Source of the DNA: Candidatus Altimarinota bacterium
GTDB taxonomy: Bacteria; Patescibacteriota; Gracilibacteria; BD1-5; UBA6164
Reading direction: 5' to 3'
Assembly: GCA_028692735.1 (NCBI GenBank)
Contig: JAQUWS010000004.1
Span: 1 to 50,071 of the forward strand
DNA length: 50,071 bases
The position numbers were made by a program, and so were the translations under genes. The notes below the pieces were generated by a model. It did no database searches. It worked only from the letters and a program-made list of their open reading frames with translations, and had not been told where the DNA came from. The number at the start of each line of letters is the position of its first letter. Positions within the stretch are counted from its first letter, which is position 1. This document shows positions 3,001 through 49,643 of the stretch, in pieces.

Positions 3001-4485
3001 TGGGCTATTTGTTGATTTGTCTAGTTGGAAGTGATCTTGGAGAAGGATTTTCCGACTTGGGATAATTGCTTTATAATTGTTTCAAATATATCAAATAGTA
3101 TTTGTAGAGATACTAATTGTTCATGATTCTGTATTATTATTTCAAATATATCAAATAAATCATGGTAAGTTCGAAGTAAAATTTTCAGTATTGTTTGTTC
3201 ATATATATCATACAAATCATGGTGAGTTTGTATTAAAATCTTTTTCTTCGTAGTCTGTTCATATAAATCATACCTTATTTGAAAAACTTTTATATATATA
3301 ATCTCAAATTTGTGTATAATTTGTTATCTCTGTACCACATAGTGATAATTCTCAAGTACAAAAACTAGTTTCTCATGTATTTGTAGCATTTTTATCTCTT
3401 AAGTATATAGAATTATAGTTATTTGATCAATCATATAGTTCATTAATTTCTGATGTTGCTAAGTTTTTATACTGTGTTTGCTGTTTATTATTAATTGTAT
3501 TATAATAGTTGTATATTATATTGTCTCAATAAGATAATATCTTTCAGTTTAAGGGATTATATGATAAATATGCTCAAGCTGGAATAATTTCCGTATCTCA
3601 AGTTCAGGTGTGTATATATGTATGTTGAGTCCAGTTATTATCATAATTCATATAATAGATATCTGTTCATTTTTTTCATATAATTTGTCAGTATTGTCAT
3701 ACATCCAAATTTAAACTTGTATATATTAAATCATCATAATCTGATGTATCAACAATCCAATTCTGAGTTGTCTGCTCCCGAGTATTAAAGTTATATATAC
3801 TTGTTGTCTTGATCAATTCATCTTCTGTCTCTGTAAAACTAAAATAAGAATCTAAAAAATAACTTTCTGACTCAATATGTGCTGTTCATAAAGATACTTC
3901 TTCTCATGTTGTGAGATTTTTTAAGTAATTTATACTTTCTCAAGTCTCAGGATAATATCTGTTATATATTATTTTATTGTAATCATTTGAAATTGCTTGT
4001 AACCGAATTCAGTCTCATCAAACAAGTAATTCTCAAGATCAAGAATTAAGTACATTTTTTTCATAAAATCAATTTTCTCAATTACCATTGTCTATATAAT
4101 ATACAAAATTTCATGTTTCTTTATTTATATTCAACATATATCACCGTCATCATAAAGGAACATCAAATAAAGCTTTTTCAGTTATACTTTTTAAATCTCT
4201 ATAATATAATATATTAGTTCATGAGATAGAATCATATTTTTCATATATAATTCATTTATCTTTATAAACTCATCTAGCATAATTCTCTAATCATAATTTT
4301 GTCTTTGTTCAAGAATCTAGATCTATAAAATATAATCTATCACTATCAGTTGGATCATTATAAATAGATATTCATCAAAATTCTTCAGATAAAGCTAAGA
4401 CTTGTGTAATATATGTTATAAGAAATACAAAAATAGATATTATTAATAATATAAATATTTTTATATATTTATTGATTGTTGACAT
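1..4485 (-). CDS. Secreted YD-repeat (RHS-type) giant protein, C-terminus outside window
   Basis: The reading frame runs without TAA or TAG from ATG at 4485 to the window edge (1495 codons; TGA read as Gly). Residues 1-32 form a lysine-containing start and a long hydrophobic segment, so it is secreted or membrane-anchored. Residues about 33-390 are a beta-rich region of unknown family. Residues about 396-475 are four 20-residue repeats carrying GFIG or GYIG cores. From about residue 516 to the edge the protein is a long array of YD repeats, with motifs such as EYDINGNKTKIIDP and TYDSLGRL. YD-repeat proteins form large beta-barrel cocoons on cell surfaces and often end in a variable or toxic C-terminal domain, but that end is not visible, so no toxin claim is made. 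It follows the upstream beta-rich gene by 27 bp. A palindromic repeat lies in frame at 374-402. CGG codons occur in the N-terminal part. Confidence 0.9.
374..402. repeat. Palindromic repeat copy inside the YD-repeat gene
   Basis: The inverted repeat has arms ATCCTGAAC and its near complement TTTCAGGAT, preceded by GTC and followed by CTTTT. It matches the dispersed palindrome family seen at 7063, 18554 and 18646. It is read in frame as part of a YD unit (KDPETSSGG on the minus strand), so it does not break the gene. Confidence 0.6.
3061..3300 (-). repeat. Four tandem 60-bp (20-residue) units inside the YD-repeat gene
   Basis: Four successive 60-bp blocks encode similar 20-residue units with a GFIG or GYIG core (two of the Gly encoded by TGA), followed by an Asn/Thr-rich turn such as GNNNTES. 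The period is exactly 60 bp, so the reading frame is preserved. The units have diverged at DNA level outside the core. Confidence 0.75.
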
Positions 4486-4512: not shown

Positions 4513-5793
4513 TTAATAAACTACTACAAATAAAGGATTTTCAACATATGGTAATTCCTCTCCTGTTACTTCTTGATATAAAATTCTATAGTCTGTATCT
4601 ATGTTTATATTTGTTCATATTGTCTTTCTTAAAATCCACCCTATTCATTTAGCACTTGTTGGAATACTTCAAGTATAATTATTTTTGTAATTATCTGTAT
4701 CTCTAGTATCAGTAAATCAATTTAAAAATAGATTATTATATGCAACTTCATTATTTGTTATGATTACTGCTCATGTACTTTGTACTTGATTATTTACAAA
4801 TGTATTATATTTTACATTGGTATCATCAGTTCAAACTTTAAATCCTCATACATTTGTAAATTTATCATTTATGTATGTTGAATTACTATTTTCAGTACGG
4901 AAGCTATTTCATCATAAATCAATTTCATTTGAGATAAATGTAATTGATCCGTAATTGTATCAATCTTGGTTTTTTCATGCAATATAAAAATTGACATTAT
5001 ATTTTACATTATCAGTATTGGAGTTTATAATACTTATCTTGTTATCTTTTAAATGAAATGGAGCTCTAAAATCGTAATTTCAATTTATTCTTAAATTTAT
5101 ATTAGAATTTTCTATAGAGAATCAACCTGAACGAATACTTGCATAACTTGCACAATGCCGAGATCAATACTCATACCGTCAACTTATACAACTAATATCA
5201 AAATTTATAAATTGCTTCAAAGTACTTATGTTAATAAGTGATTTTTTTACTTTAATTAAACCTGAATTGAGTGTATTCCGTGTTATATTTTTATATCATG
5301 CAAAATAATATCATGTTAAATCATTTTTTGAAAAATTAAAGTTTTCAAATTCTATGTTTCAAACCTGTTGAGATCATAATTGGAAATATACGTTTTCAAT
5401 AACAGGGTATCAATTTGCTCATACTATTGATAATGTACTTCAGTTATTTGTCCCAGCAAAGTTAAGTGTTATATTTTAATCCTTTCAATCATATTTACAT
5501 CATCATTTCACTCTTATTTCAAATATAAAATGAATATATTCTCATCAAGTTCAATACGCATTTGTCAATCAATTATTATTTATATACAAAATTGTTTTTT
5601 CAATTCATTGTTTTAATGATAAATATGGTTTTGAATGATCAAAAGGAATTCAAGTTGTATCTGATCAGTTTTCACAATCTACATAAGTATAATCAGCCAT
5701 TGGTTGAGAGTCTGCATATATATTGTTTAATCAAAAAACAAAAAATAAGAAAAAAGAAATAGCAAAAATAGAAAGTTTTAAATAATTTTTCAT
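4513..5793 (-). pseudogene. Secreted beta-rich (possible parallel beta-helix) protein interrupted by one in-frame TAA
   Basis: ATG at 5793 starts a clear signal peptide (lysine, then a run of Phe/Ile/Leu, ending near NNIYADS). The same frame continues to TAA at 4513-4515, 427 codons in all, with a single TAA inside at 5476-5478. Both sides have the same composition, rich in Asn, Gly and beta-type stretches such as NITLNFAGT and KISIINSNTDNVKYN, reminiscent of right-handed parallel beta-helix proteins. No start codon in this frame lies just after the TAA. It is either a nonsense-mutated gene, an assembly or polymorphism error, or a readthrough case. It sits 27 bp upstream of the YD-repeat gene and 34 bp downstream of the membrane protein gene. 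The beta-helix assignment rests on composition only. Confidence 0.65.
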
Positions 5794-13806: not shown

Positions 13807-14946
13807 TTAAATTATTTCTCTGTGTACACTAGAATTTAATCTTGTTAACACTTCCCGAGTCACTGTTTCAGACTTTTTTGCAAGTTCGTAAAGATTATTT
13901 TTGTCTTTTATATTGTTTGAAATAATCTTTACATTATCTTGTAGTTTTACTTTTTCATCTATATTTATACAAGCAAGATTCATACACATATTTCATACTT
14001 GATTATAATAACAATCATTTATCAAAACTTTCCAATTATTTGATAAGTTTCTTGGAAGTCATTCAAAGTATCAAAAAGGGATCATTCATACTTTTGTATC
14101 TTTTTTGGAAATAAAACTTTTTGTATAACTTACTCATTCTCATGTCTTTACATTTTGAATTGAGACAATTGTACTAAAAAGTTCTAGTGCTGGTTTTAAT
14201 CATAATAATTTTTTATAGTCTTTATCTTTTTTATCAAGTGGATTATATCAGTAAACGATAAGTCATGGTCTGTAAGCCGTAAAAAAATCATCTTGTATTT
14301 TCATAAGTCATGCACTTGCTCAGATATGTTTATACTTAGGTTTAAATCAAGCTTTTTCTATTTTTTTATGCATTTGTTTAAAGTTGTCTATCTGCATCTG
14401 TGAGATACTAAAATCTATTTCATCAGCATTTGAGAAATGTGAACAAACTCACTCTATATTTAATTTTGATTTTTTAATTATCTTAAGTATTTGAGTTAAG
14501 TTTTCTTCTTGTATCCCTTCCCTATTCATTCATGTATTTAAAAATAAATGAATATTGATTTTTTTGTTTAATGATGTTAGATAATTTATTGTATCTTTAT
14601 TATAAACACAAAAAGAAGCTGTTTTAAAATCAAAGTTAATGTAGTTTTCTTTTATTGTTTCTCATAAGATAAGAATTTTTTTATCAGTATATTTGTTTAC
14701 TATTTGGTATTCTGGAAATGAGTCAACTGCAATCATAGAAATATCTGTTTCATCCAAAATTTGAGATATTTCCTTTAATCAATGTCAATATGCATTTGAT
14801 TTTAAAACTGGAAATATTTCTGCACTTGGTTGAATTGATTTTATAAGTTTTATATTTTCAAGTATATTTTCTTTTGAAATTTGAATCTTATTTGTATGAA
14901 CTAATTTTGGTTTTATAAAATTTTTTATTTTGTCTTTTATTTTCAT
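13807..14946 (-). CDS. alr: Alanine racemase
   Basis: The 379-residue PLP enzyme interconverts L- and D-alanine for peptidoglycan. The PLP lysine lies in FPVLKSNAYGHGL (K49), with two of the motif Gly encoded by TGA. The C-terminal beta domain ends near ETVT-x-EVLTRLNSSVHRE. There, x is CGG (13855-13857) at the position of the conserved Tyr in the usual TIPYEVL, which favours Trp over Arg. It lies 10 bp after maf and 17 bp before the M48 gene, inside the wall operon. Confidence 0.93.
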
Positions 14947-19553: not shown

Positions 19554-21176
19554 TTAGTTTTTTATACATCTAACACTATATCAATTAGAACGATAAAAAT
19601 AGTTATCTGGAGTAATTCACGTAGAATCAAATGACATATGAAATCATTCACTACCATTTGGTGATGATGTTCTATAATAACCATAAGTACCTAAATTTGT
19701 ATAAGCACTTGTATTCCGATTACGGTAACCAGCTCTAGGTAACTTAAGTTCTTCAACCATAGCAACAGCTCATCCATATAACCATTGTCATGCTGTATGT
19801 ATTGCTAACAATTCTGAATTTGTTGGGATATGGTATCAATCTTCACAAGGTCATTGCATTTTTAATCTATCGGATTCACTTGAATTTCACCAAGTTGCAG
19901 TTGTTTTTACAGATTCTAGTACTCACCAATCATTTGCACTTCAAGCATTAGTTCATCCAGGAGATTTCCAATCATAACTATATGCTGATTGTCAAACATT
20001 CCAAGATTCATCATTTCTACCAAATTGAAAATATTTACCATATGATGATGCTCAAGTTCAAGCAATAGTTGATCATACATTACATGCTGATAAAGTATAT
20101 CAAGTTCCAGCTCATGAACATAGTACAATATCAGGAGTATCACATCATGGATATGTTGAAGTCGCAGAAAAAGGTGCTGGTATTTTTTGTCAAGTACAAC
20201 TATCATAATCACTTGCACTAACTGGATCTTCTCATCATGATTCTCATCATGAAGAAGTTATATTATTTATAGGATCTACATATTTTAATCTTATTCAACC
20301 TTTATTTGTATTTATATAATCAATTATTACATTTATTGCTGATCATGTATTATTAATTGGATTTACACTCATTATTTCTTCATATATAGGATTTTGAGCT
20401 AAAATAGTTCATGTATATGCATTTTGTAAATTTGTAAAAAACTCTATTTTAGTGGTATTTTCATCATGCAATCAAAGTAAATCTCAACTATATATTAATT
20501 GTGTTGGTTTATTATAATCAAATCATCCTGTACTATTTTGATTGTATGAATGAGGATAATTTCAATAGTTATTAAAAACAACTTTCTTGTTTGATAATAT
20601 ATTTCATAAATCAGTATTTCATATATCTGATACAATTATACTTGGTTGTGCTAATATCCAGCTTGTGGTTCAAGTATTTACTTTTGTAAATTTTTCGTTG
20701 TAGTTTCAGCTTATATATGCTACCGCATTTATCTTACTTAAATCTGTTGCATATGTATTGTTTATTATTGTATTATTTGTCAATCATCATCATTCACTTA
20801 TCGCTCATATTTGATATTCTGTTTTACTACTTGTTATACTATATGTGTACTCGTTTACAGTCAGTGGATCTGTTATAACTTTACTTACACTTTGTATGTT
20901 TTTTATTACATTTTCTCATAGTGTACCTTCTATCCATACTGTTGCTCAGCTATATGTTATATTTGTAGCTCAGTCTGGGATTGGGTAAAATCATGCTTTT
21001 GTTATAAATATCTCTAAACTTTTTTTTGCACTATTTATATCTGCTATCCTTACTCAATCTCTTGAGTTTCTAGAATATCCTTGAAAGCTTATAAAAGCTA
21101 TTGTTCATAATATTGCAAGGATTACTATTACTACTATTAGTTCTACTAACGTGAAAGCTTGTTTTTGTATTTTCAT
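19554..21176 (-). CDS. Type IV pilin-like (pseudopilin) protein with FISUMP C-terminal domain
   Basis: The protein has 540 residues. The start MKIQKQAFTLVELIVVIVIL is a class III signal peptide, cut by prepilin peptidase before Phe (Ala at -1, Glu at +5), with the conserved long helix and a pseudopilin-type SRDGVRIADI. The middle carries YPIPDG and WIEGTLGENV blocks. The last about 200 residues are a Fib_succ_major (FISUMP) module ending GYSVRCIKN. FISUMP domains are found in secreted adhesin-like proteins of unknown ligand. The design suggests a pilus-tip or surface-presented binding module. A hairpin ending the upstream SLT gene lies just before its ATG. Confidence 0.88.
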
Positions 21177-26566: not shown

Positions 26567-27928
26567 TTAAAATCATGCTATTTTTGCTTGTTGTAAAATT
26601 TCTTTCTCTGATAATACACTATTATAAATTTTTACATCATCTATTACTCATGGATTTTGTTTTTTTGCTAATGCATGCCCAGATGTTCCAATATAAAAAG
26701 GAACTTCTGAGTTAAAAATTTCGTTATTATATATCTTTTCAAAAATTAATTTTTGATTTAAATATATTTTTAGTTTTTTATAATTTTCTTTAACTAAAAC
26801 TAATTCATACCATTTCTTTGTTCACATAATTTCTGAATTTGTAATGTTTTTGTATATATAAGGTGTTTTTAATATATCATATCATTGTATTCATATTCAA
26901 TAATTTTGAATTTCTTTATCTGATAATCAAATCCGAAAAGCTCAAGATTGAGTACATGTAATAGAACAATCCCGTCTATTTATTATAGAATGATAGGTTA
27001 TATAAGATGTTGTTCCAGTATTATACTGACTCCATGTATCGTATTCATCATATAATGTAAAAAAATTAACTTTTATTGTCAAATCTTTGTAATTATTAAA
27101 TCAAGCTGAATTTTCTACTATATATCATCAAGTTTGAAACTGTAAAGCTCATCATAATATTCATCATGTAGCTTCAGTATATGTTCAAGAAAAAGTTGCG
27201 TTATGTCAATTTCAACTTAAGTCTAATAATGTTGTTCAACTTAATGTCTCCATATCCCAGTATCATACCAATCTATCATCATAGTTTTTTAAAATCATAT
27301 CTTCTTTTTTTAGACAAGATCAAGATTTACTATCCAGTTTGTTTTCTCATCAGTTCACTATAAAACATACACTTGGATCATATATTCATCCACTTCATAC
27401 ACTATCTTTTACTGTTATCAAACTTGGTAGACTTGGATCAAAACTATAGTTTCATAACACTATCACTTCTGTTTCCTCTGCATTTGCCTTTTTTATTACC
27501 CCTGTTGTTAAATTTTCTCTTTCATAGGCTATTTGGTAATACTGTCCATCTCAAAATACACTATATATATAATTTGTTCAAGTCTTTGGATCTAATGGAA
27601 TTGTGTTTAAATCTATTGATCTTACTACATTTTCTCATATAATTCACTGTTTTATTTCTTCTGTTCATCCTACTAGTATAATTGAAGTATCTGGTTCTGG
27701 ATATCTTCCAGATTTTAATGAAAATATCTCTAATCATTTCTCTGCATTTTTTGTATCTGATATCCTTACACTATCTCTTGAGTTTTTGCTATATCATTGA
27801 AAACTTATAAATGCTATTGTTCATAAGATTGCTAAGATTGTTATTGTTACTATTAGTTCTACTAGTGTAAAGGCTTTGGTTTTACTATTTGATAGTTGAT
27901 TGAATTTATGAATTATTGATTTTTTCAT
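26567..27928 (-). CDS. Type IV pilin-like protein with LamG domain (copy 3)
   Basis: The protein has 453 residues. The N-terminus MKKSIIHKFNQLSNSKTKAF is near-identical to copy 2, followed by SRDSVRISDTKNAEKGLE. The C-terminus is again LamG. It is the first gene of the tandem trio on the minus strand, so its promoter lies in the spacer to nrdA. Internal Cys-containing strands (KDSV onwards) are likely disulfide-linked outside the cell. Confidence 0.87.
27794..27928. repeat. Near-identical 5' gene segment shared by LamG pseudopilins (copy B)
   Basis: This is the partner of 26376-26510, in the same orientation. It encodes the signal and pilin helix. Confidence 0.75.
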
Positions 27929-32547: not shown

Positions 32548-34140
32548 ATGAAAAATTTTTTAAAAGGTGTCTTTTTATCTTTTCTTATCGTTATTGTAGC
32601 TCATGCAGATTATTATATAACAAAGGACCAACTTGACGATTATACAAGCAAATGATATATATTATCTGATAATTATGAATCTATTACTGATTGTAATAAT
32701 GCATTGGAAACAAAACAAGAATTTAAAAATTATGAAAGGAGTATTTGTTTTTCAAGTGTTAATTGATACAATTATTTTATGTGTAATGCTTCATTAAATT
32801 GTGATATATCTTCAACTACTAAAAATATTTTATATAAGGATAAACTAGATGAATTTATAAGCAAACTAGAAACATACAAAGAAAAAGAAAATTATGAAGA
32901 AACATTAAACAATATAAAAGCTTCGTTAAGTACTCTAAAAAATAAATATAGTAATAACTATAAAATAAATTCAATGATTACTTATCTTGAAGAGGGAGTT
33001 AGTAATTTAATTGAAGAATATAATGATTCTAATGATTTTACAGACTTTTTCTCAGATTTATCTACTACAACTAATTCTGGTTTTTCATCAACAAGTACTA
33101 CAACTAGTTCTGGTTTTTCATCAACAGGTACTACAACTATGACTTCTTGAACTTGAGCTAATTCTAATACTAGTAATATATGAACTACTTTTCAATCACC
33201 TTTTTATTCTATAAATTGATTAAGATATGCCTTGTGGGCAACAGACAAGACGGCATGGGGATACTGTAATTATAAGTGATATCCTTATTATTTAAGTTAT
33301 GAAAAAAACTGTTCTACATCTACAAGTCCATACAAGAATAATCCTTGATCAGCAAATTACTCTTGAAATATATGAACTTATAATAAATCTTCATGGTGAG
33401 TTTGGGCAAACTGATCATGTATAAATAAAATAGTTTGTTGAAATAGTAAACCTGATTCTAGTGTATGAAATAATCAGACAGTAACAAATTCATGTGAATT
33501 TTACTATACATATACGGAATATAAAAGTTATGATTGTTCTTCTTGAATAGGAAAAACAAATAATAGACAAGATAATAATTTATCAAACTACTCTCAAATA
33601 AAGTATTGAAGTGAAGTGAACTGAAGTCGGTGTTCATATATACATAGTAGTGCTAGCCGTTTATATAAAATGATAAGTGATAATTGAAACTGTATCTTGA
33701 CAGATGATCAAATTAGTAAAGCAAAGATGTTAGTTGAAAAAAATTTAAGTCAAATACAAGATCAGAAAGAAAGTGATGAAGCTGTAATTGAATTAAAGAA
33801 AAAGCAAGAAGAAGAAGCCAAAGCTAAAGCTGAAGAGGCTGCAAATACATTAAGTTTTTGATACTCAAAAGTAACTACTTATGTTGATAAATATAAATTT
33901 TATTGGAAAGCTGGTTCAAATTATAAAAGTTGTTATTTATCAACTATTTTATACAAAAAAAATGCATCTTGAACATATGAGAAATTATGAACATCTTTTT
34001 GAGAAAGTTTTAATCCATCAAGTAATTATATATTTACATTAAGTAAAACTTGATCAAAAAAATCAGATTTTATACTAAAATGTTATAAAATTAACCCTAG
34101 TTGAGAGTTTGTTTCAAAGACTATATCCATTGAATATTAA
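32548..34140 (+). CDS. Secreted Cys-rich protein with Thr/Ser-Gly-Phe repeats, unknown
   Basis: The protein has 530 residues. The signal peptide MKNFLKGVFLSFLIVIVAHA precedes DYYITKD. A helical segment (residues about 100-170) leads to a Thr/Ser linker with repeats of the type TTTSSGFSSTGTTT (residues 170-215). Then a Cys- and Tyr-rich region (about 13 Cys, with KTAWGYCNYKGYPYY) follows, a Lys/Glu/Ala coiled helix (EAVIELKKKQEEEAKAKAEE, near 410-430) and a beta C-terminus with Cys. The layout is of a modular extracellular protein. It sits between nrdA and nrdB without obvious link to them. No family is recognised. Confidence 0.8.
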
Positions 34141-35383: not shown

Positions 35384-36433
35384 ATGAATAAAAAATATTT
35401 AATTTTAACTGGAAGTTTTTGAGATGGACATAATGTAGCGAAAAATAGTATTAAAAATTATTTGGAAGAAAAGTGAGAAATTGTAAGAGTTTTTGACTAT
35501 GCAGATATGTTTGAATCAAAAGAATCAACTCAAAGATTGTATAAATTTTTTGCTGAAGATTATCCATTGCTTCGGAAATATTACTTAAAGTTACTTGAAC
35601 TTCATATTTGAAATATTTTTGCAAAAAAATATTTTGTAAACAAATATTCACAAATAGTTGATAAAGTTATAAATGAGTTTATTCCTGATTATATAATTTC
35701 TGTGTTCCCTGTTTCTCAATACTTTGTTTGAAATTATAAAGAAAAATATGGTTATAATTTTAAATTTTGAGTTGTAATTACAGATGCTACTATTCCATAT
35801 CCATGGTATTTTGAAGATAAATATATTGATAAATTTTTTGTAGTAGATAAATTTTCAAAAAAATATTTAGAAAATAAATTACCTAAAAGAAAAGATGATA
35901 TAATATCAACATTTTTTCCTCTTGAAAGAAAATATTTTTTAGATAAATCTGTTCTAAAAAATGATGTTATTGCTATACTATTGACAGCTTTTTCTTATGA
36001 TTTTTCAGCAAAGCTACTTAAGAGTCTTGAAAAAGAAAGTTTCTATAAGAAAGTAATAATTATTAAATGAAGAAATGATTTAGTATTTTGAAAACTTCAG
36101 AATAATTTTAATCACTCTAAATTTGAGTTTAGCAGTTTTATAAATATCAAAGATGACCTAAAAAATATTGATATATTTATATCAAAACCTGGTTGAGCTT
36201 TGGTTTCTGAATGTATTGCACAAGATGTATATATGATTATTCCGTTTTTTATTTATTGACAAGAAGAGGAAAATATAGATTTTCTTGAAAGAAATGATAT
36301 GTGATTTTTTTCAAAAGATGTAAATAGAATTGTTAATTTCTTAAAAGAATGATATAAAAAAATCAAGCTAGATAATTTTAAAAAAGTAAAAAATAGGGAT
36401 GCTGTAAAGGATATAATTGAAAATCTGATTTAG
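35384..36433 (+). CDS. GT28 glycosyltransferase of the MGDG synthase / diacylglycerol glucosyltransferase type
   Basis: The protein has 349 residues. The start MNKKYLILTGSFGDGHNVAK is the acceptor-binding loop of the family (GxGH). The middle VISVFPVSQYF and FGVVITDATIPYPW fit the N-domain; FISKPGGALVSECIAQ is the nucleotide-sugar-binding C-domain. The family transfers a sugar from a UDP-sugar to diacylglycerol or extends such lipids, at the cytoplasmic face of the membrane. A CGG codon (35573-35575, residue 64) falls in YPLL-x-KYY, where relatives often have Trp. Substrate not inferred. Confidence 0.85.
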
Positions 36434-37433: not shown

Positions 37434-38300
37434 ATGTTTTATTGAATAATTTGAGCTTTACTTACTTCTGTGTGAGATTTGGCTTATAAAAAATCTGTAA
37501 TAGTTAGTAAATCAAAATTATCAAACTCTTGATATCAGTTTGTGAGTTGATTTTTTTATGTATTGTTGATTTCTTTTTTTTATTTTATATCTATTATCTT
37601 TGATTTTCAATCAATAACAAACATACTTATATTAAAAATAATTTCTATTTTTTTCATTATCTGAAGTATAAATGTATTTTGATGATTATTATCTTCTTTT
37701 GCATATAAAAATGAAAAAATATCTGTTTTGACTATTTATCAACAATTTGAAACAATTTTTACTGTAATTTTTTGATTTATATTTTTCTCATGAATTTCTT
37801 ATATATCTTTTATTTTTGTATTTATTGCTTGAATTACTTTACTTTTATGAAGTTTTGATAAACAGAATCTGAAGTTCAATAAATATGCTTTTGCTATAAT
37901 GTTATCTAGTATAATCTACTCAGTTAAGTCTAATTTACTTGCTTTCTTACTTATTTCAATTACTCCACTTGATTCTATTTTGTATTCAAACTTATTTACT
38001 TTTATTTGTGCATTGTTACTTGTATATTTTAAAAACGAATCTAAAAAAAGTATTAATAAAACCGATAAAAAAATGGTTGTTTACATGATTTTTGAGAGCT
38101 TTAGTCGGATTTTGATTTGAATAATTTATGCTTACTTGATTTCTGAAATATGAATTGTACAAACTTCATTATTATCACTTTTAAGTATATTGACAAATCT
38201 TGTTTTTTGATATATTTTCTTTAAAGAGATTCCTACAAAAAAAGAATATTTGATTACATTTGTTGTAATTTCTTGTGTAATTTTATGAAATTTATTTTAA
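37434..38300 (+). CDS. EamA/DMT-type permease (copy 1)
   Basis: The protein has 288 residues and nine or ten hydrophobic spans in two halves, the layout of drug/metabolite transporters (EamA family). It starts MFYGIIGALLTSVGDLAYKK and has YQQFETIFTVIFGFIFF in the middle. Substrates range over amino acids, nucleotides and sugars in the family, so nothing specific is claimed. A CGG codon (residue 225) sits in a transmembrane stretch, ESFS-x-ILIG, and matches the same position in copy 2. Confidence 0.82.
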
Positions 38301-38313
38301 TAAATAATCTTTT

Positions 38314-39183
38314 ATGTTTTATTGAATAATTTGAGCTATTTTAAATTCTTTGTGAGATATAGCTTATAAAAAATCAGTATTAACTGCTGAGGATAAAATT
38401 TCTCCTTATTGATATCAGTTTGCAAGTTGGTGAGTATCTTTAAGTATTATTTCTCTAACTTATTTTTTTTGTGTTTTTTTCAATATAATTGAGTTTAATC
38501 ATATTTTGAATTTAAAAAATTTGCTTATTTTTTGTCTTTTATGACCGATGAGTGTTTGAGTAAGTTTTTTATTTGCATATGCTTATAAAAATGAGAAAGT
38601 AGCTGTGCTTACACCTTATCAACAAGCTGAAACTATTTTCACTGTAATTTTATGATTTCTATTTTTCTCTTGAATTTCATTTAAAGCTTTTTTATTTGTG
38701 TTACTTGCTTGATTTATACTGATTGTTTGAAGTATAGATTTCAAAAATATAAGCTTTAATAAATATGCTTTTTCTGTGGTTTTGTGAAGTTTCATTTATT
38801 CTATAAAATCAAATTTAATTGCTTACATTCTTATTTCTATAAGTCCTTTAGAATCTATTTTTTATTGAAACATATTTGCTTTTTTAGCCGCTCTTGCAAT
38901 GATTAATTATAAAAAAGAATTTTTATTGACAGTTAGGCAAACTTCAAAAAAAATGGTTATGTTTATGAATTTTGAAAGTACTGTTCGGTTACTTGTATGA
39001 TTTGTTTATGCTTATCTAGTTTCTGAAGTTTGAATTATTCAAACAACTCTTTTAGGATTATTAACAATTTTTTCAAATATGATTTTTGCTTACTTCGTAT
39101 TTAAGGAAGTCCCTGAAAAAAAGGATTATTTTATAGCACTTCTTGTAATAATTTGTATTACCTTATGAACATTTGCAGGATAA
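38314..39183 (+). CDS. EamA/DMT-type permease (copy 2)
   Basis: The protein has 289 residues and starts 13 bp after copy 1. MFYGIIGAILNSLGDIAYKK and YQQAETIFTVILGFLFF parallel copy 1 over the full length, so they are tandem paralogues and may form a heterodimer. CGG is again at residue 225 (ESTV-x-LLVG). It is followed 70 bp later by the GT2 gene. Confidence 0.82.
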
Positions 39184-47324: not shown

Positions 47325-49643
47325 ATGTTCAATCAAAAAAATCAATGATTCACATTAATAGAATTAATTGTTACAATTGTAATTGTATTAATTTTATGAA
47401 CTATTGCTTTTATAAGTTTTCAAGGGTATAGTAAAAATGCAAGGGATTCTAAAAGAATTGCTGATATCAATCATGTTGAGAAAAGTTTGTGATTGTATGT
47501 AGTTAAAACTTGATTTTATCCTATACCTGATAGATCAAAAAACATTACATATTGATGATGAACTGCTTGGATTGAAGGAACTATATGAGATACGGTAATT
47601 AAAAATATTGATAAAGTTAGTAAAAAACCTATTGATCCACTAACTGATAATGAATATACTTATAGTATAACTCCTTCAAGAACCGAGTATCAAATTTGAG
47701 CTATAAGTGAATGATCACTAACTTTTGATTTTAAGTTAAACAAAACTTACGCTGCTGATTTAAGTAAAGCTAGAGCTTATATTAAATGAAATTATAATGA
47801 AAAAATTACTAGAGTTAAGTATACAAATTCTGATTCTTTACTTGCTATGCCTAGTATCATTGTAACCGATATTACTGATCCTAAACTTGAAACTATTTTA
47901 CCTAAAAAAATACTTGTTTTTAATAATTATTGAAATATACCTCATTCTTATAATCCTATGTGAACTATGACTTGAGAAGTTGAATACAACCCTTCAAATC
48001 TTGTAGTTTACAATTGAACTTCTATAGATTTATCTAAAGATGAAGATAAAATTACGTTTCTTTCTAATCTACAAAATGCTTATAGCTGATCTTTTTTATC
48101 ATCTGAACCTGCTTATTCTGATATTATTGATGTTGATATCGTAAATAATCCAAATATTGCTATTAGTCTAGTTAATAATTTTGTAGATAATAATATATGA
48201 TGAATTGTCTGAACTCAGTCAAATATAGTATATAAAACTTGTTCTCTTGATTGACAAACTATTGCTCATGATCAAAAAATCACTGCTTATAGTGAAAATA
48301 GTATATTACTTTGAGCTAGTTATGATTGTGTTGACATTTCTTTAGAAAGAACTTGTTCTGACTGATTATTAAGCTGAGATGATTCTTTTAAATATGCTAG
48401 TTGTGCTAAGTGAGTTGCTTCTAATTGTAGTGCTAATTCAAGTTATGTTTTTAATTGACATACTTATAATATACCTGCTATTAATCACTGAACATCTACT
48501 TGAAATATTATTTCTACTAATGTATCATGAACAAATTGAATTTATACTTATACATTAACAAGTGTGAGTTGTAATGATTGAGTTCTTATAAACCCTATTG
48601 AAAATTCTACTCCTACTATTGTCAGTTGTAACACTTGATATACACCAAGTTGAAGTACATGTATACCATTAACTTATACTGTTAGTTGAAGTTTTTGATC
48701 TAATGCTAGTTGAGCTTTGATAAATGTTTGTTGAACTTATGTAACAGCTAATTCTAGTTGAAATTTTTCTGCAACAAGGAATTATTGAAGTACTTGTAAC
48801 ACTATTTCTGCAACTAGATCTTGATATAGTTGTACGACTACTACTCAATGACCAGTTTCCTTAACTAGTAATGTTACCACTATTGCTTGAAGTTGTACTT
48901 TACTAAATCCTTATGCTTCATGTACTTCTGCAGGACAAGTTACTTCATCAACTACAAAATATCCTTGAATTTCAGTATGATGAACAAGACCTGCTCATTG
49001 AGCTTGTAATACTTATGACATAATTGTATGTACATGAGTTTGATGATGATATACTATGTCTGCATGTAATATATGAGCGACAGCAGCTTGAACAACAAGT
49101 GCTTCATATTGATATTACTTCCAATGGTGAAGAAACAAGTGATTTACTTGAACAACATCAGCTTATACTCCACAACAATCATCAACCATTGCATGAACTG
49201 TATGATTAGATGCATCTACTGATACATATGGTTTTGTACGGAATACATGATATCAAACATGGGCAAATACTACTATAACAACAAATTGGTGAAATAATTG
49301 AACTGTTTTAGAAAAACAATGACCATGTGCAGATTGATACCATGTTCCAAATTTATATGAATGGCATTGAGTTGTTTATGCTTGATGATACTATTGATGG
49401 TATAGTACCCAACAATGAGATTCAATGAGTTATAGTTTAAAACTTCCCCTTGCTGGGTATAGGGATTGATGAGATTGAGCTATGCATTATGCTTGAACTT
49501 ATTGAGAATATTGGTTATCTATGCAATCAACTTCAAATACTGCTTTAAGTTATAGCATACACTTTAATAATAGTATAATATATGATACTTATTCAACTTA
49601 TCGTGCACGTTGATTTCCAGTAAGATGTTTTAAAAATCCTTAA
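47325..49643 (+). CDS. Type IV pilin-like protein with Cys-rich repeats and FISUMP C-terminal domain
   Basis: The protein has 772 residues. The class III signal is MFNQKNQGFTLIELIVTIVI (TGA-encoded Gly at -1, Glu at +5), then FISFQGYSKNARDSKRIADI. The N-half is close to the 19554 protein (YPIPDRSKNITYGGGTAWIE, FNNYGNIPHSYNP). The middle (residues about 330-560) has about a dozen Cys in short units such as SCNTGYTPSGSTC. The end is a FISUMP domain (GPCADGYHVPNLYEWHG to RGFPVRCFKNP). So a common pilin head carries an extra Cys-rich stalk here. It is followed by a strong terminator. Confidence 0.88.

What the first reader, a model, noticed from the sequence alone, without database searches (positions are those of the whole stretch)
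13855..13857. CGG probably encodes tryptophan, not arginine
CGG is rare and sits where an aromatic residue fits. In alr it replaces the conserved Tyr of TIPYEV (codon 364). In the GT28 gene it is in YPLL-x-KYY (35573). In both EamA paralogues it is at codon 225 within a membrane span (38106 and 38986). Others are in secreted proteins (3054, 3780, 4005, 4146, 5160, 5178, 5280 on the minus strand). Conserved Arg in DnaK, NrdA and NrdB are AGA, AGG or CGT. CGA/CGG-to-Trp reassignment has been described in Absconditabacteria, so this would place the organism.
Basis: partly seen in the sequence, partly recalled or inferred. Interest (0 to 1): 0.72.

Follow-up and report, generated by a model that had tools for sequence, protein, structure and literature searches.

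The report
CGG reads as tryptophan, CGA arginine

Summary
The meaning CGG = Trp is supported genome-wide; the taxonomic inference is not. The window belongs to a 1.53 Mb, 23% GC genome with UGA = Gly. Against a same-genus genome (199 orthologue pairs), CGG that is not itself CGG in the relative aligns with Trp 22 of 26 times and with Arg 0 times. Pfam scores agree (FtsK, FtsW, TrpRS, hydrolase, RmlD). A tRNA with anticodon CCG exists, with A1:U72 and G73, an odd elbow and an extra anticodon-stem pair; it occurs in 26 full-length plus 1 partial of 36 genomes of the family. CGA stays Arg (26 aligned sites: 9 Arg, 6 Lys, 0 Trp). A sister family, and one same-family genome that keeps tRNA-Arg(UCG) and lacks the CCG tRNA, read CGG as Arg. 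So the code is UGA=Gly, CGG=Trp, CGA=Arg: not the Absconditabacteria code reported in 2021 (CGA and CGG both Trp), but what that paper hints at for some Gracilibacteria. Charging of the tRNA by TrpRS is inferred. No tRNA for CGA was found.

The parts
13855..13857 (-). CGG, codon 364 of alanine racemase (alr)
   Evidence: W scores +5.6 (NCBIfam) / +1.8 bits (Pfam) over R; Tyr still better by 2.4 bits in the fragment test
35573..35575 (+). CGG, codon 64 of a GT28/MGDG-synthase-like glycosyltransferase
   Evidence: R scores 2.5 bits over W in PF06925, so no local support for Trp
38106..38108 (+). CGG, codon 225 of EamA paralogue 1
   Evidence: R scores 1.7 bits over W
38986..38988 (+). CGG, codon 225 of EamA paralogue 2
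   Evidence: R scores 1.8 bits over W
3052..4146 (-). four CGG codons (3052, 3778, 4003, 4144) in a 1495-aa secreted-type protein
5158..5280 (-). three CGG codons (5158, 5176, 5278) in one reading frame
19716..19718 (-). CGG, codon 487 of a pilin-like (FTLVELI) protein
26933..26974 (-). two CGG codons (332 and 319) of a 453-aa protein
33628..33630 (+). CGG, codon 361 of a 530-aa protein
49239..49241 (+). CGG, codon 639 of a pilin-like protein

Best explanation
The genome uses the code UGA = Gly, CGG = Trp, CGA/CGU/CGC/AGA/AGG = Arg. CGG is read by a dedicated tRNA with anticodon CCG (G000:C97:16473-16549) that has the acceptor end of a Trp tRNA (A1:U72, G73) and is therefore most likely charged by the single TrpRS (the charging is inferred). 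In the family, tRNA-Arg(UCG), which would read both CGA and CGG, is missing wherever this tRNA is present. Its loss in a GC-poor genome probably left CGG rare and free, so that tRNA(CCG) could take it to Trp without touching CGA. CGG now makes up about 10% of Trp codons.
For: (1) Unbiased comparison with same-genus genome G004 (199 reciprocal best pairs): own CGG faces CGG 18, Trp(TGG) 12, Tyr 1, Asp 1, Arg 0; G004 CGG faces CGG 18, Trp 10, Asp 1, Val 1, Arg 0. Control: CGT faces Arg 57 of 77, AGA faces Arg 1244, TGG faces Trp 309 and CGG 10. P(0 of 26 Arg if CGG behaved like CGT) is about 6e-16. (2) Pfam scores, W minus R: Abhydrolase_1 +6.6, RmlD +5.5, FtsK +4.1, FtsW +3.7, TrpRS +3.4, alr +1.8, T2SSE -0.5, DEAD -1.0, ATP_bind_3 -1.2; W beats Y in FtsK, FtsW, TrpRS, hydrolase and RmlD. 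(3) TrpRS codon 91 is CGG; that column is Trp in 27 of 31 relatives and 39 of 79 distant bacteria, Arg in none apart from this genome's own CGG. (4) CGA is Arg: Pfam R minus W MutS_III +5.5, EngB/MMR_HSR1 +4.9, ClpB/AAA_2 +4.2, QueA +1.8; 26 aligned CGA sites give 9 Arg, 6 Lys, 0 Trp. (5) tRNA(CCG), invariant A1:U72 and G73 in 28 sequences; the lineage's tRNA-Trp has A1:U72, G73, while its tRNA-Arg(CCU) and (UCU) have A73. (6) Lineage controls: in the sister family CGG faces Arg 20, Lys 15, Trp 0; in same-family G016, which has a tRNA-UCG pattern and no CCG tRNA, CGG faces Arg 3, Lys 1. (7) UGA = Gly: no ORF of 150 aa or more in table 11, dozens in table 25; only an RF1-type release factor found by motif.
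Against: The tRNA has an A at or near position 20, an Arg identity element in E. coli; its D-loop lacks G18G19, so by the rules of PMC8629427 its identity would be left open. Anticodon position 36 is G, not the A of tRNA-Trp. Three of the four profile-scored window sites lean slightly to Arg. The genes of the Pfam test were picked by eye (the G004 comparison was not). Possible dual charging of CGG cannot be excluded. The tRNA that reads CGA was not found.
Confidence: 0.95

Rival explanations
1. The Absconditabacteria code as published: CGA and CGG both mean Trp.
For: Same UGA = Gly background, low GC and CGG = Trp (PMC8629427).
Against: CGA never faces Trp in 26 aligned sites and scores as Arg in MutS, EngB, ClpB and QueA. 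CGA is rarer than CGG (1.7 against 6.2 per 10,000), the reverse of what was reported. No tRNA-UCG found in the family where the CCG tRNA is present.
Confidence: 0.03
2. CGG is still arginine (plain code 25) and its positions are chance.
For: GT28 and EamA window sites score 1.7-2.5 bits better as Arg; an A near position 20 of the tRNA resembles tRNA-Arg.
Against: 0 of 26 non-identical partner codons are Arg, 22 are TGG; Pfam +3 to +7 bits for Trp in five families; the same test gives Arg in sister lineages, so the method can return Arg.
Confidence: 0.01
3. CGG is translated ambiguously, mostly Trp with some Arg, by dual charging or by misreading.
For: Mixed identity elements in tRNA(CCG); in other clades these reassignments were described as an early stage with possible ambiguity (PMC8629427).
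Against: No CGG at conserved Arg columns was seen in this genome or in G004.
Confidence: 0.12
4. CGG codons come from sequencing errors (TGG to CGG) or from mis-binned contigs.
For: CGG and TGG differ by one transition.
Against: 18 positions are CGG in both of two independent genomes; CGG is spread over most contigs; a matching tRNA is conserved in 27 genomes of the family.
Confidence: 0.01

Closest known systems
CGG to Trp in some Gracilibacteria (remark in Shulgina and Eddy 2021, PMC8629427)
   Same: UGA = Gly bacteria of the candidate phyla radiation, very low CGG usage, CGG = Trp in some members and Arg in others.
   Different: Here with a same-genus codon comparison, evidence that CGA stays Arg, and the tRNA-for-tRNA exclusion. 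The paper's figure supplement and tables could not be opened, so overlap may be larger than stated.
CGA and CGG to Trp in Absconditabacteria (PMC8629427)
   Same: UGA = Gly plus CGG = Trp, tRNA(CCG) with features consistent with Trp identity.
   Different: CGA is Arg here. PMC13092985 reports a 5-bp anticodon stem in all Absconditabacterales tRNA(CCG); here a sixth pair covaries.
CGG to Trp in Anaerococcus and in Bacilli of order RFN20 (Onthovivens)
   Same: CGG alone reassigned, CGA kept as Arg, tRNA-UCG missing, low GC.
   Different: Unrelated phylum without the UGA = Gly reassignment; there CGA is presumably read by tRNA-Arg(ICG), for which no sign was found here.

Membership tests
Code 25 lineage (UGA = Gly; Absconditabacteria/Gracilibacteria) | in-frame UGA read as Gly, no release factor 2 | tested here: met
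   ORFs open only in table 25; UGA 562 per 10,000; only an RF1-type factor found by motif in 93% of the genome. tRNA-Gly(UCA) was not found in the incomplete assembly.
Absconditabacteria code (CGA and CGG = Trp) | CGG = Trp | tested here: met
Absconditabacteria code (CGA and CGG = Trp) | CGA = Trp | tested here: not met
   CGA at Arg columns, never at Trp
Absconditabacteria code (CGA and CGG = Trp) | tRNA-UCG present, reading CGA and CGG | tested here: not met
   none in this genome or genus by pattern; the assembly is 92% complete
CGG-only reassignment to Trp (Anaerococcus / Onthovivens type) | CGG = Trp with CGA = Arg and tRNA-UCG lost | tested here: met
CGG-only reassignment to Trp (Anaerococcus / Onthovivens type) | CGA read by tRNA-Arg(ACG), modified to ICG | tested here: inconclusive
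   no ACG tRNA by pattern in 16 family genomes and no TadA motif in own ORFs; assembly incomplete, motif search crude
tRNA-Trp identity | G73 and A/G1:U72 | tested here: met
   28 of 28 sequences
tRNA-Trp identity | no A20 in the D-loop | tested here: inconclusive
   D-loop AATTAGAA without G18G19; the residue after the AG is A, so N20 is uncertain or A

The most novel reading that the evidence does not exclude
Within one bacterial family the meaning of CGG switched from Arg to Trp through a tRNA swap: loss of tRNA-Arg(UCG) and takeover of CGG by an unusual tRNA(CCG) that combines a Trp acceptor end with an Arg-like D-arm, a changed elbow (T-loop TGCAATT, no G18G19) and a sixth, covarying anticodon-stem pair, which would keep it from misreading CGA so that CGA can stay Arg.
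Probability: 0.4. Interest if true: 0.62.

Novelty: new variant of a known kind. Interest (0 to 1): 0.5.

Why it matters
Sense-codon reassignments in bacteria are few and recently found. This family holds genomes before and after the change (CGG = Arg with tRNA-UCG; CGG = Trp with the odd tRNA-CCG), so the order of tRNA loss, codon depletion and recharging can be tested. In practice, proteins of these genomes are mistranslated in databases by about 6 residues per 10,000, and CGA must not be changed along with CGG when correcting them.

Tried and rejected
A genome-contig scan with a TrpRS alignment, meant to name the organism, returned only distant bacteria. A viral scan for the D-arm of the CCG tRNA found 13 contigs, none with a CCG tRNA: no sign of phages carrying it. 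A structural scan for any other NCG tRNA in this genome and G004:C4 found only the CCG one. TrpRS columns that separate reassigned from other genomes (three) were weak and not pursued. Reading CGG as Tyr, suggested by alr, was rejected.

Full report
Observation. The window is G000:C32 of a 98-contig, 1.53 Mb assembly, 91.8% complete, GC about 0.234 in the 93% read. It has no ORF of 150 aa or more in table 11, but a dense set in table 25, so UGA is Gly. CGG is rare in the window and in the genome (255 codons, 6.2 per 10,000; CGA 72, 1.7 per 10,000, of which 14 lie in one repetitive reading frame; CGT 416; AGA 8,813; TGG 2,367; TGA 23,289).

The window sites alone are undecided. Scored with CGG as W against R, alr gains 5.6 bits in TIGR00492 and 1.8 in Pfam, but the GT28-like protein loses 2.5 bits and the EamA paralogues 1.7 and 1.8.

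Genome-wide test. Translating CGG and CGA as X, I paired this genome with 400 kb of a same-genus genome, G004 (199 reciprocal best pairs, mean 68% identity). Own CGG faces CGG 18, TGG 12, Tyr 1, Asp 1; G004 CGG faces CGG 18, TGG 10, Asp 1, Val 1. No Arg codon in either direction. In the same table CGT faces Arg 57 of 77 and TGG faces Trp 309 and CGG 10. If CGG behaved like CGT, 0 of 26 Arg has a probability near 6e-16. Pfam scores for windows around CGG in 12 genes favour W over R in hydrolase, RmlD, FtsK, FtsW, TrpRS and alr, and over Y in the first five; these genes were chosen by eye. TrpRS itself carries CGG at codon 91, a column that is Trp in 27 of 31 relatives and in 39 of 79 distant bacteria.

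CGA is different. In MutS, EngB (GRSNVGKSS), ClpB and QueA, CGA scores as Arg. Over G004 and other family loci, 26 CGA sites face Arg 9 times, Lys 6 times and Trp never. In G015, which has the CCG tRNA, CGA stands at the near-invariant Arg of PYSLMLRAHSFKD in TrpRS.

The tRNA. This genome has one tRNA with anticodon CCG, at C97:16473-16549. A DNA search of 60 relatives found it in 26 family genomes at full length plus a fragment at a contig end in one more, and in two copies in G054 of another family. In 28 aligned sequences A1:U72, G73 and the anticodon are invariant. The lineage's tRNA-Trp(CCA) also has A1:U72 and G73; its tRNA-Arg(CCU) and (UCU) have A73. Unusual features: D-loop AATTAGAA without G18G19, T-loop TGCAATT, and a sixth anticodon-stem pair (columns 27:45, C-G 11, A-U 10, U-A 6, U-G 1); the pair next to the loop (columns 32:40) forms in only 11 of 28 sequences, so the arm can also be read as five pairs with a nine-base loop. 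The A after the D-loop AG may be A20, an Arg element, so identity by sequence rules alone stays open; the codon evidence decides for Trp.

Lineage controls. Pattern searches for tRNA-Arg(UCG) hit 21 of 23 genomes of the two other families that lack the CCG tRNA, and in this family only G016, G020 and G030, none of which has the CCG tRNA (counted by eye from tRNA-shaped matches). Exclusion within the family: Fisher P = 0.012; over 60 genomes P about 7e-9, not corrected for kinship. G054 is the exception: two CCG copies and a UCG-type match. In the sister family CGG faces Arg 20, Lys 15, Trp 0, and in G016 Arg 3, Lys 1. So the same test returns Arg where the tRNA set is ancestral.

Mechanism. 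Shown: CGG stands at Trp positions, CGA at Arg positions, a CCG tRNA with a Trp-type acceptor end exists, and tRNA-UCG is missing with it. Inferred: charging by TrpRS, the order of events (loss of tRNA-UCG, depletion of CGG under low GC, capture by Trp), and a role of the long anticodon stem in limiting wobble to CGA. Unexplained: which tRNA reads CGU, CGC and CGA. None was found in this assembly, patterns with canonical T-loops found no convincing ACG or GCG tRNA in the genus, and no TadA motif was seen. The assembly also lacks other expected tRNAs (Ser, Val, Asn, Arg-UCU, Gly-UCA), so this is a gap, not a result.

Comparison. Shulgina and Eddy (PMC8629427) reported CGA and CGG both as Trp in Absconditabacteria, and added that some Gracilibacteria read CGG as Trp and others as Arg. 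They argued that tRNA-UCG makes the two codons hard to split; here it is missing and they are split, as in Anaerococcus and the RFN20 Bacilli. PMC13092985 reports 5-bp anticodon stems for all Absconditabacterales tRNA(CCG). The present case therefore fits the Gracilibacteria remark better than the Absconditabacteria code. No name could be assigned to the organism with the tools at hand.

Noticed in passing
L173 (G000:C14), TrpRS codon 91: The tryptophanyl-tRNA synthetase gene itself uses CGG at a conserved Trp position, in this genome and in G004.
   Followed up: yes
G000:C64:2355-35376 (L087, L135): Tandem array of a dozen or more paralogous proteins of about 500-660 aa with an N-terminal CxxC motif and a shared IPDDILN[W]AIECEIT motif, Trp written CGG in most copies; also in G004:C4 about 48-96 kb.
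   Followed up: partly
L177 (G054:C5:4754-4830 and 5461-5537): A genome of another family carries two nearby copies of the odd tRNA(CCG), 92 and 88% identical to ours, closer than some same-genus copies; possible transfer or misplacement.
   Followed up: no
G010:C8, G034:C95 and C127: Two family genomes have two TrpRS genes over the family cut-off.
   Followed up: no
G000:C59:13482-26558: A 4,359-aa open reading frame next to one of 2,221 aa and near one of 1,289 aa, the largest with a homologue in G004:C4; giant proteins of unknown role.
   Followed up: no
L300 (G004:C4:325815-325890): tRNA-Arg(UCU) has a G27.A43 mismatch at the top of its anticodon stem, a 4-bp stem of the kind discussed in PMC13092985.
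   Followed up: no
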